DNA from: Snodgrassella alvi wkB2
GTDB lineage: Bacteria > Pseudomonadota > Gammaproteobacteria > Burkholderiales > Neisseriaceae
Assembly: GCF_000600005.1 (NCBI RefSeq)
Contig: NZ_CP007446.1
Span: forward strand, 1,762,894-1,826,893
Reading direction: 5' to 3'
Length of the DNA stretch: 64,000 nt
Below are positions 42,376-48,080 of the stretch, one piece after another (the stretch's first letter is position 1; each line of letters begins with the position of its first letter). The translations under genes and the position numbers were made by a program. The notes under the pieces are model-generated. The model was given only the letters and a program-made list of their open reading frames with translations, was not told the origin of the DNA and made no database searches.

Positions 42376-43317
42376 TTAATTCATGCTGTTCAGCGGCCGG
42401 ATAACTTCATCAATCTGACGGTTCAGACTTTCCAGCCCGTTGCCGGATAAATACCACAAGTCAGCACTAAGATTAACGATTTGTGTACCTGCATTCTGCA
42501 TAACTTTATTATCAAAATAATCGCTGCGCATCGGTGTATTGCCTATTGCTTTACTGCGGTCAACAACGTAAATAATATCCGGATGATATTGAGCAATAAA
42601 CTGATTATCAACCATTATACGTGCCGGCCGGCCATTTTCAGCTTTATCCGGTACAGGCAGAGCATTGGCATTTACAGCCCGTTTTACATGTAATTCATCG
42701 AATATCAGCGCAGCATAGCTACCCTGATTCATCAGCATCACATTTCCATCATTATGTAATACCACGATGGCTTTTTTACCGGATTGCTGCGCGAGCTGAC
42801 GGGCTGCATCCATTTTTAAATCCAGTGCATTCAACTGCTCCTGCGCCAGTACTTCTTTGCCGGCAATTTTCCCCAGCAATCTGATCTGATTCTTGACCGC
42901 AGAATAATAATTTTCACCGGCATTAACTGAATAATTGAGTGTAGGTGCAATGGCACTTAAATCTTTATAGAAATTATTCTGCCTTCCGCTCATGATTATC
43001 AGATCCGGACTGGCAGCTTTAATACCGGTAATATTCGGCTCCTTCATTTTGCCTGAATCCTGTACCCGTGCATTATGATATTGTTGCAGATAAGCCGGAA
43101 TATTACTTACCGGCGCAGCAATAACGCGGTTGCCGGCACCCAGCGCATCCAGCGTATCTAAAGCACCGAAATCCATCACAACAATTTTTTGCGGTTGTAC
43201 CGGTATCTTAATTTCTTCGCCAGCCTGAGTAAGGTTAATTGACGGTGCAGTGCTTTGACAGGCACTTAACCCCATCATCAGAGCCGATGCCACAGCCAGC
43301 GTTATTATTTTTTTCAT
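42376..43317 (-). CDS. Iron-siderophore ABC transporter substrate-binding lipoprotein
   Basis: A 313-residue periplasmic binding protein of the FecB/CeuE/FetB type. A lipoprotein signal peptide ends in LSAC (Cys20), followed by two lobes: KIVVMDFGALDTLDALGAGNR, then PDLIIMSGRQNNFYKDL and HPDIIYVVDRSKA. It should capture ferric siderophore for an ABC importer. No permease or ATPase gene is adjacent; partners must be elsewhere. A strong Fur box lies 28-62 bases upstream, so iron repression is very likely. Confidence 0.92.
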   Translation of the reverse strand: MKKIITLAVASALMMGLSACQSTAPSINLTQAGEEIKIPVQPQKIVVMDFGALDTLDALGAGNRVIAAPVSNIPAYLQQYHNARVQDSGKMKEPNITGIKAASPDLIIMSGRQNNFYKDLSAIAPTLNYSVNAGENYYSAVKNQIRLLGKIAGKEVLAQEQLNALDLKMDAARQLAQQSGKKAIVVLHNDGNVMLMNQGSYAALIFDELHVKRAVNANALPVPDKAENGRPARIMVDNQFIAQYHPDIIYVVDRSKAIGNTPMRSDYFDNKVMQNAGTQIVNLSADLWYLSGNGLESLNRQIDEVIRPLNSMN

Positions 43318-43344: not shown

Positions 43345-43379
43345 TATTAAATAATGATAATTATTATCATTATTTAATA
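43345..43379. promoter_or_regulatory. Fur box
   Basis: A perfect palindrome with 16-base arms (43345-43360 and 43364-43379) around three bases contains ATAATGATAA and TTATCATTAT, close to the Fur consensus GATAATGATAATCATTATC. It lies 28 bases before the siderophore-binding lipoprotein start. Confidence 0.88.
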
Positions 43380-43459: not shown

Positions 43460-43777
43460 TTAGTGTGCGCCCAGTTTCAGACCAATAATACCGGCAATAA
43501 TCAGTGTCAGGCTAATCAGACGCATGGCACCAGCCGGTTCTTTAAAAGCAATGATACCGACAATGGTTGCTCCAACAGCGCCAATACCAGTCCAGACTGC
43601 ATAAGCTGTACCTACCGGTAATGAACGCATGGACTGTGCCAGCAGAAGAAAGCTGCCAACCAGAGCAGCCAATGTAATGATACTCGGAGTGAATTTAGTA
43701 AAATTCTGTGAATACTTAAGACCAATTGCCCAGACTATTTCAAGTATGCCGGCCAGCAATAATGACACCCAAGCCAT
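43460..43777 (-). CDS. sugE: SMR-family guanidinium exporter SugE/Gdx
   Basis: A 105-residue four-helix small multidrug resistance protein starting [20 protein letters not shown], with the essential membrane Glu13 in helix 1 and [19 protein letters not shown] in helix 3. This subtype (Gdx) exports guanidinium in exchange for protons. I chose ATG 43777; the longer open frame upstream is occupied by a guanidine-II riboswitch, which identifies the substrate independently of homology. Confidence 0.94.
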
Positions 43778-43799
43778 AATGATTCCTGTTAAGGCTGAT

Positions 43800-43846
43800 G
43801 CAGGCCGTCCTGCGTGAGAATCTACCGGCCGGGTCGTCCCGAACGG
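43800..43846 (-). promoter_or_regulatory. Guanidine-II riboswitch (mini-ykkC)
   Basis: On the minus strand two short hairpins precede sugE. CGGGACGACCCG (43830-43841) has loop ACGA and GCAGGACGGCCTGC (43800-43813) has loop ACGG. Two stem-loops with ACGR tetraloops joined by a short linker are the diagnostic structure of this riboswitch class, known to control guanidinium exporters. The proximal hairpin lies 22 bases before the start codon, so ligand binding probably frees the ribosome site. Confidence 0.9.
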
Positions 43847-44016
43847 ATGCATAAATAAGCATATGAATAATGGCATCATAATAGGCAGTCTGAATCAGCG
43901 TCAAGCAATCAAAACTCCATTGGAACAAAAACAGATGGCTATAAACCATCTGTCAGGATATAGATACTGATCGCAGTTCAGTCTGCCACAGTTATAATCA
44001 ATATAATGCTGCGAAC

Positions 44017-44403
44017 TTATTTCTTCTTCTGAATGAATTCAATTTTATAGCCATCAGGATCTTCCACAAATGCGATGACAGTAGTGCCATGCTGCATGGG
44101 TCCGGCCTCACGGGTTACACGACAGCCCTTAGCGCGCACAGCATCACAGGCAGCATAAGCATCATCTACCTCAATAGCAATATGTCCGTATCCTGTACCT
44201 AGATCATAAGTAGGTGTATCCCAGTTATAGGTTAATTCCAGTACGGTACTGTCAGATTCTTCACCATAGCCGACAAAAGCCAGAGTAAAACGTCCGCCGG
44301 GAAAATCTTCCCGTCGCAGCAGTTTCATACCAAGCACATCCTGATAAAACGCCAGTGATTTATCCAGATCACCTACTCGCAGCATAGTATGCAACATTCT
44401 CAT
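44017..44403 (-). CDS. gloA: Lactoylglutathione lyase (glyoxalase I)
   Basis: Detoxifies methylglyoxal as its glutathione hemithioacetal. The 128-residue protein has [20 protein letters not shown] with the metal-ligand His5, [25 protein letters not shown] with further ligands, and [14 protein letters not shown] at the end. The size fits the nickel-type bacterial enzyme. It ends before queA's partner strand region and follows queA by 17 bases, so both are likely co-transcribed. Confidence 0.96.
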
Positions 44404-46721: not shown

Positions 46722-48080
46722 ATGTTAAAAAAAGTTCTTATTGCCAATCGTGGCGAAATTGCGCTGCGCATTCTGCGCGCCTGCCATGAAATGGGTATTG
46801 CAACCGTGGCTGTGCATTCAGAAGCCGACAGTGATGCTCTGCACGTTAAGCTGGCTGATGAATCTGTTTGTATTGGTCCGGCCAGTTCCGCCCAAAGTTA
46901 CCTGAATATCCCTGCTCTGATTTCCGCTGCTGAAGTTACCGATGCTGATGCCATTCACCCCGGTTATGGATTTCTGGCAGAAAATGATGGTTTTGCAGAA
47001 CAGGTGGAGCAGTCCGGTTTCGTTTTTATCGGTCCGCGTCCGGAAACCATACGTCAGATGGGCGACAAAGTTTCTGCGAAAAAGGCAATGCAGGCTGCCG
47101 GTGTTCCCTGTGTACCCGGTTCAGATGGTGCATTACCGGAAGATCCGCAGGAAATTGAAAAAATCGGTGCTGCGGTAGGCTATCCGGTCATTATTAAAGC
47201 ATCAGGCGGCGGCGGCGGTCGCGGTATGCGCGTAGTTGAAAAGGCTGAGGATTTACTGGCCGCAGTAGAAATGACCCGTACTGAAGCCGGTGCTGCTTTT
47301 GGTAATCCTGCAGTGTATATGGAGCGCTATCTGCAGAAACCGCGCCATATTGAAATTCAGGTACTGTGTGATGAACATGGCAATGCCATTTATCTGGGTG
47401 AGCGTGACTGCTCTATGCAGCGCCGCCATCAGAAAGTCATTGAAGAAGCACCGGCGCCATTTATCACTGCGGAAGAACGCGAACGTATTGGTAGCGCGTG
47501 TGTGGCTGCATGTCAGCGCATCGGCTACCGTGGTGCAGGTACATTTGAATTTCTATATGAAGATGGTGAGTTCTTCTTCATTGAAATGAATACCCGTGTA
47601 CAGGTTGAGCATGCTATTACTGAGCTGATTACCGGTGTGGATATTGTGCAGGAGCAAATCCGTGTAGCTTCCGGTCTGCCTCTATCCTACACTCAGGCAG
47701 ATATCCGTTTACAAGGACATGCTTTTGAATGCCGGATTAATGCCGAAGACCCGTATACTTTTGTTCCCAGCCCCGGCCTGATTACCAGCTGCCATCAGCC
47801 CGGTGGTAACGGTGTGCGCATTGACAGCCATATTTATCAGGGCTATACCGTACCTCCTTATTACGATAGCATGATTGGTAAGGTTTGTACCCACGGGCGT
47901 GATCGTAATGAAGCTATCGCCAAAATGCGTGTTGCCCTGCAGGAGCTGGCCATCACCGGTATTAAAACCAATACCAACCTGCACCGTGATATTTTTGCTG
48001 ATCCGGGTTTCATTCATGGTGGTGAAAGTATTCATTATCTTGAACAATGGTTACAAAAACACAAAGAATCACAAAAATAA
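46722..48080 (+). CDS. accC: Biotin carboxylase subunit of acetyl-CoA carboxylase
   Basis: ATP-dependent carboxylation of biotin on AccB. The 452-residue ATP-grasp enzyme begins [18 protein letters not shown] and has [28 protein letters not shown] and [20 protein letters not shown]. It is followed by an uptake-sequence-like terminator. Confidence 0.98.

What the first reader, a model, noticed from the sequence alone, without database searches (positions are those of the whole stretch)
43460..43846. Guanidine-II riboswitch controlling a guanidinium exporter
Two ACGR-loop hairpins precede sugE, which gives a ligand-level assignment of the transporter as a guanidinium exporter rather than a general drug pump. 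It suggests that this organism meets guanidine, possibly in its host niche. Some pipelines would wrongly extend the coding frame across the riboswitch.
Basis: partly seen in the sequence, partly recalled or inferred. Interest (0 to 1): 0.55.

Follow-up and report, generated by a model that had tools for sequence, protein, structure and literature searches.

The report
Guanidine riboswitch before a guanidinium exporter
A bee-gut bacterium carries a short RNA switch of a well-known kind that most likely turns on a pump for the toxic ion guanidinium when guanidine is present; it is a real but ordinary member of a known family.

Summary
On the minus strand, 22 nt upstream of sugE (43460-43777), two ACGR-loop hairpins lie at 43800-43846. 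Rfam's Guanidine-II model (RF01068) aligns end to end: 30.9 bits, E 2.4e-4 over the whole genome, just under the curated cut-off of 32. Other evidence carries it over that shortfall. Shuffles of the window (0 of 200, 0 of 100) never hold the motif. In the genus (Snodgrassella), 8 of 14 genomes have a sugE ortholog and all 8 have the match at the same distance; the other 6 have no ortholog and no match above chance level. In two of those six, gene and hairpins remain only as a joint remnant. Of 80 named sugE homologs, 35 have an above-cut-off Guanidine-II riboswitch upstream. The protein has the Gdx residues E13, W16, S42, Y59, W62, while another SMR gene in the genome is of EmrE/Qac type. Guanidinium export is thus the best assignment, though NCBIfam names it a quaternary-ammonium pump. 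Translational ON control is inferred; linker-to-Shine-Dalgarno pairing lacks covariation support here. That the organism meets guanidine in its host is untested. New member of a known kind; low interest.

The parts
43875..43904 (-). predicted sigma-70 promoter TTGACG-18-TATGAT of the sugE leader
   Evidence: consensus scan, 10 of 12 matches, which is not evidence of function; similar stretches are visible by eye in the 8 genus leaders
43825..43846 (-). hairpin P1, GGG-ACGA-CCC core with imperfect lower stem; loop 43834-43837
   Evidence: sequence; RF01068 alignment; pairs vary on both sides across genera
43814..43824 (-). linker between P1 and P2; contains UUCU, complementary to the Shine-Dalgarno region (candidate anti-SD)
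   Evidence: leader-only minimum-energy fold; not supported by covariation
43800..43813 (-). hairpin P2, GCAGG-ACGG-CCUGC; loop 43805-43808
   Evidence: sequence; RF01068; the 5 pairs are invariant in 8 of 8 genus leaders
43784..43787 (-). Shine-Dalgarno-like AGGA, 6 nt before the start codon
   Evidence: sequence
43460..43777 (-). sugE/gdx, SMR-family guanidinium exporter of the Gdx subtype, 105 aa
   Evidence: NF008512 141.2 bits over cut-off 126; Pfam PF00893; closest solved structure 6wk5; E13 W16 S42 Y59 W62 present
43930..43954 (-). intrinsic-terminator-like hairpin between the upstream gloA and the sugE leader
   Evidence: pattern scan

Best explanation
It is a guanidine-II (mini-ykkC) riboswitch in the 5' leader of a gdx (sugE) gene. 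Guanidinium binds the two ACGR loops, P1 and P2 kiss through the loops, the Shine-Dalgarno becomes accessible and translation of the exporter rises, so the cell pumps guanidinium out in exchange for protons. Shown here: the two hairpins, their family match, their conservation and joint decay with the gene, and the exporter's Gdx residues. Inferred from published members: ligand binding, loop kissing, translational ON control, proton-coupled guanidinium export.
For: RF01068 matches end to end, 30.9 bits, the only match in the genome at E <= 0.001. 0 of 200 and 0 of 100 shuffles contain the motif. In the genus, 8 of 14 genomes have a sugE ortholog at 88-100% identity and all 8 have the match, each 22 nt upstream, at 23.2-32.2 bits. 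Four loci of another genus of the family also have the match directly before a SugE-like ORF. Of these 12 leaders 11 have two ACGR hairpins with at least 4 of 5 pairs. 35 of 80 named sugE homologs have Guanidine-II over the cut-off just upstream and 2 of 80 have Guanidine-I. In 19 leaders (8 of the genus, 11 picked from those 35) 90.4% of pair cells are standard pairs and 41 cells have changes on both sides, 0 of 500 shuffles as high, 32.5-53.4% paired when slid. W16, conserved in Gdx and Gly or Ala in Qac according to PMC7695847 (passages), is Trp here and in 79 of 80 named homologs by a loose pattern. Literature: ACGR loops, kissing and translational control (PMC9094411 passages; PMC9561414 passages; PMC12186494 passages and section 5).
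Against: The score is below Rfam's gathering cut-off; only 1 of 8 genus members is above it. One of the 12 leaders (L091) keeps only the inner 3 of the top 5 pairs of P1. The leader folds only slightly better than its shuffles (z = -1.20). Within the genus alone covariation is no better than shuffled. In the 19 leaders the number of pairs with changes on both sides (7 of 11) was reached by 152 of 500 shuffles, and the outermost pair counted in each stem is unpaired in 8 of 19. The linker-to-SD pairing is not supported: 56.3% of cells paired, fewer than when slid by one column towards the 5' side, 72.9%. With 30 nt of coding sequence included, the thermodynamic ensemble for this leader breaks P1; restoring P1 and P2 costs 3.3 kcal/mol, against 0.1 to 0.4 in 3 of the 8 genus leaders.
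Confidence: 0.93

Rival explanations
1. The leader is a guanidine-II riboswitch but the SD is controlled differently from the linker anti-SD model, for instance by P1's 3' arm pairing with codons 7-10 of sugE, which would break P1 in the unbound state.
For: With coding sequence included the minimum-energy fold of this leader pairs P1's 3' arm with the coding sequence around codons 7-10; P1+P2 then cost 3.3 kcal/mol here and up to 5.7 in one relative. Linker pairing lacks covariation.
Against: The effect is not conserved: cost 0.1 to 0.4 kcal/mol at the same length in 3 of 8 genus leaders. P1 is transcribed first and can fold first (inference).
Confidence: 0.15
2. The gene is a general drug (quaternary ammonium) pump and the riboswitch-like hairpins are incidental.
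For: NCBIfam NF008512 names the family quaternary ammonium compound efflux SMR transporter SugE; the review PMC12186494 (section 5) reports QAC resistance by some Gdx proteins.
Against: W16 and the other Gdx residues are present; the closest solved structure (6wk5, Gdx-Clo by recall) has E 1.5e-34, EmrE 7.5e-12 at best; the genome has a separate EmrE/Qac-type SMR with Ala where Gdx has W16; hairpins and gene are kept and lost together.
Confidence: 0.04
3. The conserved leader is protein-coding: a 139-aa SugE with an N-terminal extension.
For: The frame is open for 139 aa from ATG 43879, and 6 of 8 genus leaders have a frame open for about 39 codons upstream.
Against: 2 of 8 genus leaders have a stop inside P1; the in-frame ATG at 43852 is found in 1 of 8; ATG 43879 lies inside the predicted -10 hexamer; the solved homolog 6wk5 aligns from its first residue to the downstream ATG.
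Confidence: 0.02

Closest known systems
Guanidine-II riboswitch (mini-ykkC), Rfam RF01068
   Same: Two hairpins with ACGR loops and GG/CC closing pairs, short linker, directly before the SD of an SMR exporter gene; full-length model match.
   Different: Weaker lower stem of P1 (mismatch or bulge), score 1.1 bits under the cut-off; an A-U pair in P2 where the 11 other members aligned have G-C.
E. coli gdx (sugE) leader
   Same: P1 loop ACGA and P2 loop ACGG, as stated for E. coli in PMC13064478 (passages).
   Different: The E. coli sequence itself was not aligned here; Citrobacter, Lelliottia, Enterobacter and Atlantibacter leaders were, with a GGGG-ACGG-CCCC P2.
Gdx-Clo (PDB 6wk5 and others; the link of code and name is recalled), SMR Gdx subtype
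   Same: 105 aa, aligned without gaps over residues 1-102, same E13/W16/S42/Y59/W62 set.
   Different: Gdx-Clo is from Clostridiales oral taxon 876 (PMC9574504 passage); transport was not tested for the present protein.

Membership tests
Guanidine-II riboswitch RF01068 | Two hairpins, each with an ACGR tetraloop | tested here: met
Guanidine-II riboswitch RF01068 | Score over Rfam gathering cut-off (32 bits) | tested here: not met
   30.9 bits; the ortholog in G077 of the same genus is over it at 32.2, the other 7 of 8 are under. The cut-off is a curation threshold, not a structural feature; genome-wide E is 2.4e-4, so I still file it as a member
Guanidine-II riboswitch RF01068 | Conserved base pairing of both stems in relatives | tested here: met
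   90.4% of cells paired in 19 leaders, 41 cells with changes on both sides, 0 of 500 shuffles as high; 11 of the 19 were chosen among matches to the same model; not visible within the genus alone
Guanidine-II riboswitch RF01068 | Lies upstream of a guanidine exporter or guanidine-metabolism gene | tested here: met
   sugE starts 22 nt downstream
Guanidine-II riboswitch RF01068 | Anti-SD in linker sequesters the SD | tested here: inconclusive
   complementary in the leader-only fold, no covariation support
Guanidine-II riboswitch RF01068 | Binds guanidinium and undergoes loop kissing | not testable with these tools
   needs in-line probing or a reporter
SMR Gdx subtype | E13, S42, Y59, W62 and the Gdx-specific W16 | tested here: met
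   residue roles from PMC7695847 passages
SMR Gdx subtype | Transports guanidinium | not testable with these tools
   needs a transport or toxicity assay
SMR Qac subtype | Gly or Ala at the position of W16 | tested here: not met
   Trp in SugE; the EmrE/Qac-type SMR gene of the genome has Ala

The most novel reading that the evidence does not exclude
The riboswitch-gdx unit is an accessory trait of Snodgrassella that tracks differences in guanidine exposure between hosts or strains: kept intact in 8 of 14 species-level genomes, decayed as one unit in two, not found in four; and the unbound state may be set by pairing of P1 with the sugE coding region rather than by the usual linker anti-SD.
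Probability: 0.12. Interest if true: 0.4.

Novelty: new member of a known kind. Interest (0 to 1): 0.17.

Why it matters
It gives a bee-gut symbiont gene a substrate-level annotation (guanidinium export) where automatic naming says quaternary-ammonium pump, and marks a riboswitch that the standard cut-off misses in 7 of the 8 genus members that have it. The patchy retention makes a simple ecological question testable: which bee-gut bacteria need to expel guanidine, and where does it come from.

Tried and rejected
A coding extension of sugE across the leader was rejected (stops in 2 of 8 genus leaders, start codon inside the predicted -10). Linker-SD pairing was tested as the expression platform and not supported by covariation; a P1-coding-region pairing was found and is not conserved. 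Guanidine-I and Guanidine-III were sought in the whole genome: no match at E <= 0.001. A urea/guanidine carboxylase (TIGR02712) was sought: 9 matches, none over the cut-off, the best at the position of the window's own accC-like gene at 46722-48080, so no sign of guanidine breakdown by that route. Guanidinase and Guanidine-IV were not sought genome-wide.

In one search the P2 columns were set one column off; one search is the corrected count and is the one used. The reversed control of the motif search was not empty: the pattern read backwards gave 7 matches in G000 and 0 to 2 in each of the other 13 genomes, so the motif alone is weaker evidence than the family model. The exact motif was found in 7 of 14 genomes; it misses G068, which has the unit but whose P1 has a G-U pair next to the closing pair.

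Literature: 'Snodgrassella' with 'riboswitch' gave 1 paper, a broad synthetic-biology review seen only in the listing; 'guanidine', 'riboswitch', 'Snodgrassella' (two of three) gave 247 papers of which 25 were listed, none of those with Snodgrassella; a four-term search with Snodgrassella alvi gave 3,802 papers of which 15 were listed, none of those with Snodgrassella; 'guanidine' with 'honey bee gut' gave 18 papers of which 12 were listed, the top one holding the phrase only in its reference list; 'mini-ykkC' with 'Neisseria' gave 1 paper on Burkholderia small RNAs, seen in the listing. So no report of this riboswitch in Snodgrassella was found in these searches of the held library; most subscription papers are absent from it.

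Full report
What is there. The minus strand carries, in order, gloA (44017-44403), an intrinsic-terminator-like hairpin (43954-43930), a promoter-like site TTGACG-18-TATGAT (43904-43875), two hairpins, a Shine-Dalgarno-like AGGA, and sugE from ATG 43777 to its stop at 43460. The hairpins are CCGUUCGGG-ACGA-CCCGGCCGG (P1, 43825-43846) and GCAGG-ACGG-CCUGC (P2, 43800-43813), separated by an 11-nt linker.

Is it more than chance. Rfam at the gathering threshold reports nothing in the window. With an E-value threshold, RF01068 Guanidine-II aligns over its whole length at 30.9 bits, 1.1 bits under the curated cut-off. Over the whole 2.53 Mb genome it is the only match at E <= 0.001, E = 2.4e-4. The two-hairpin motif occurs once in the window and in 0 of 200 dinucleotide shuffles; the stricter core pattern occurs once, and in 0 of 100 shuffles. 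Single ACGR hairpins are not enriched, and the fold itself is unremarkable (z = -1.20). The core pattern read backwards occurs 7 times in the genome, so the motif alone should not be over-trusted.

Whose genome. The best named hit is Snodgrassella alvi SCGC AB-598-O02 (94% protein identity). Its record L002 is identical over the 415 nt compared to L091 from genome G073, which the tool places in the same genus as the window's genome. The genus is therefore Snodgrassella, family Neisseriaceae. That these bacteria live in bee guts is recalled knowledge.

Conservation in the genus. Fourteen genomes are held. A sugE ortholog at 88-100% identity is present in 8; the other 6 have only more distant SMR proteins, at most 44% identical over the full length. 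All 8 have the Guanidine-II match 22 nt upstream, at 23.2 to 32.2 bits, one of them over the cut-off. Of the other 6, five have no match at E <= 10 and one has a match at E = 7.5. In the 8 leaders the five P2 pairs are invariant and P1 varies, without covariation beyond shuffles. Across the family, 9 of 83 genomes, in 2 of 12 genera, have a match at E <= 0.001 under stricter filters that lose some weak ones; the four from the other genus also lie directly before a SugE-like ORF. By a criterion of at least 4 of 5 pairs, 11 of these 12 leaders show both ACGR hairpins; in L091 P1 keeps its loop but only the inner three of those pairs.

Joint decay. gloA was found in 13 of the 14 genomes at the threshold used, at 14 loci; G073 had none. 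In 7 of the 14 loci gloA is followed by the hairpins and sugE, and in 6 of those 7 by the substrate-binding protein gene; the seventh (G077) shows no binding-protein match in the stretch held. In G071 and G072 gloA and the binding-protein gene flank a remnant. tblastn sees only SugE residues 12-46 at 57% (G072, E 5e-5) or 3-48 at 35% (G071, E 0.58), and no ACGR hairpin meets the criterion there. Local DNA alignment of the interval to an intact unit scores 194 (G071) and 170 (G072), against a maximum of 76 in 200 shuffles of the G072 interval, and both loops are changed or missing in the alignment. In G078, G079 and G080 gloA is followed by pntA with no sugE or binding-protein gene found between; in G076 no sugE, binding-protein or pntA match was found in the stretch held; the second gloA-like locus of G077 has none either. 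Gene and riboswitch are thus kept or lost together, which is what functional coupling predicts.

Relatives elsewhere. The other 43, including the Snodgrassella record itself, show no guanidine riboswitch at the gathering threshold. Nineteen leaders (8 of the genus and 11 of the 35, picked by hand) were aligned. 90.4% of cells are standard pairs and 41 cells have changes on both sides, with 0 of 500 shuffles as high and 32.5-53.4% paired when slid; the count of pairs with changes on both sides (7 of 11) was reached by 152 of 500 shuffles. The P2 changes mostly separate Snodgrassella from the rest, so they count few events, and the 11 were found with the same model.

The protein. The product scores 141.2 bits against NF008512 SugE (cut-off 126) and matches PF00893. 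Its nearest solved structures are 6wk5 and 8vxu (E 1.5e-34 and 5.6e-34), far ahead of EmrE (7.5e-12); that 6wk5 is Gdx-Clo is recalled. It has E13, W16, S42, Y59 and W62. PMC7695847 (passages) says W16 is conserved in Gdx and replaced by Gly or Ala in Qac. By a loose pattern W16 is present in 79 of 80 named homologs, the other not being parsed. Another SMR gene in the same genome has Ala at that place and scores best against Qac/EmrE models, all under their cut-offs. The guanidinium-exporter reading is thus well founded, while the curated model name still says quaternary ammonium compound efflux.

How it probably works. Published members bind two guanidinium ions, are proposed to kiss loop to loop, and expose the Shine-Dalgarno (PMC9094411 passages; PMC9561414 passages; PMC12186494 passages and section 5). 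PMC13064478 (passages) reports that a deletion covering P2 goes with constitutive gdx expression in E. coli. Here the leader-only fold pairs linker GAUUCU with the SD region, as in the published anti-SD idea, but this pairing has no covariation support within the genus. When coding sequence is added, P1's 3' arm can pair with the coding region near codons 7-10 in this genome, but not consistently in relatives. The direction (ON) and level (translation) of control are therefore inferred from the class, not shown.

Frame extension. An in-frame ATG at 43879 gives a 139-aa ORF through the riboswitch. It lies in the predicted -10 element. Two of 8 genus leaders have a stop inside P1. Of the other in-frame ATGs, one directly follows 43879 and also touches the -10, and the one at 43852 is found in 1 of 8. 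The start at 43777 is the likely one.

Host niche. No evidence for guanidine in the bee gut was found in the searches made (listings of a part of the papers in the first three). Plants can make guanidine (PMC11018352, abstract and passages), which would fit a pollen diet, but endogenous production is equally open. The patchy retention argues that the need is not universal in the genus.

Verdict.

Noticed in passing
43353-43371: A Fur-box-like inverted repeat (AATGATAATTATTATCATT) lies before the siderophore-type substrate-binding lipoprotein gene at 42376-43317 (minus strand), which has a terminator-like hairpin after it and no transporter partner gene directly beside it. Fur-box identity is recalled, not tested.
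   Followed up: no
L128 and L129 (genomes G071, G072), between gloA and the binding-protein gene: Decayed remnants of the whole riboswitch-sugE unit at the syntenic place, with no ACGR hairpin left.
   Followed up: yes
L104 (G000:C1:1337336-1337635): An EmrE/Qac-type SMR transporter in the same genome, with Ala where Gdx has W16, scoring below the curated cut-offs of all Qac/EmrE models.
   Followed up: partly
L098 (G076:C4:95054-95362): A distant SMR homolog (44% identity to SugE) in a genus member that has no sugE beside gloA and no Guanidine-II match; its subtype was not worked out.
   Followed up: no
43800-43846 and orthologs: 7 of the 8 genus members with this riboswitch score under the Rfam gathering cut-off, so standard annotation would miss it in them.
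   Followed up: yes
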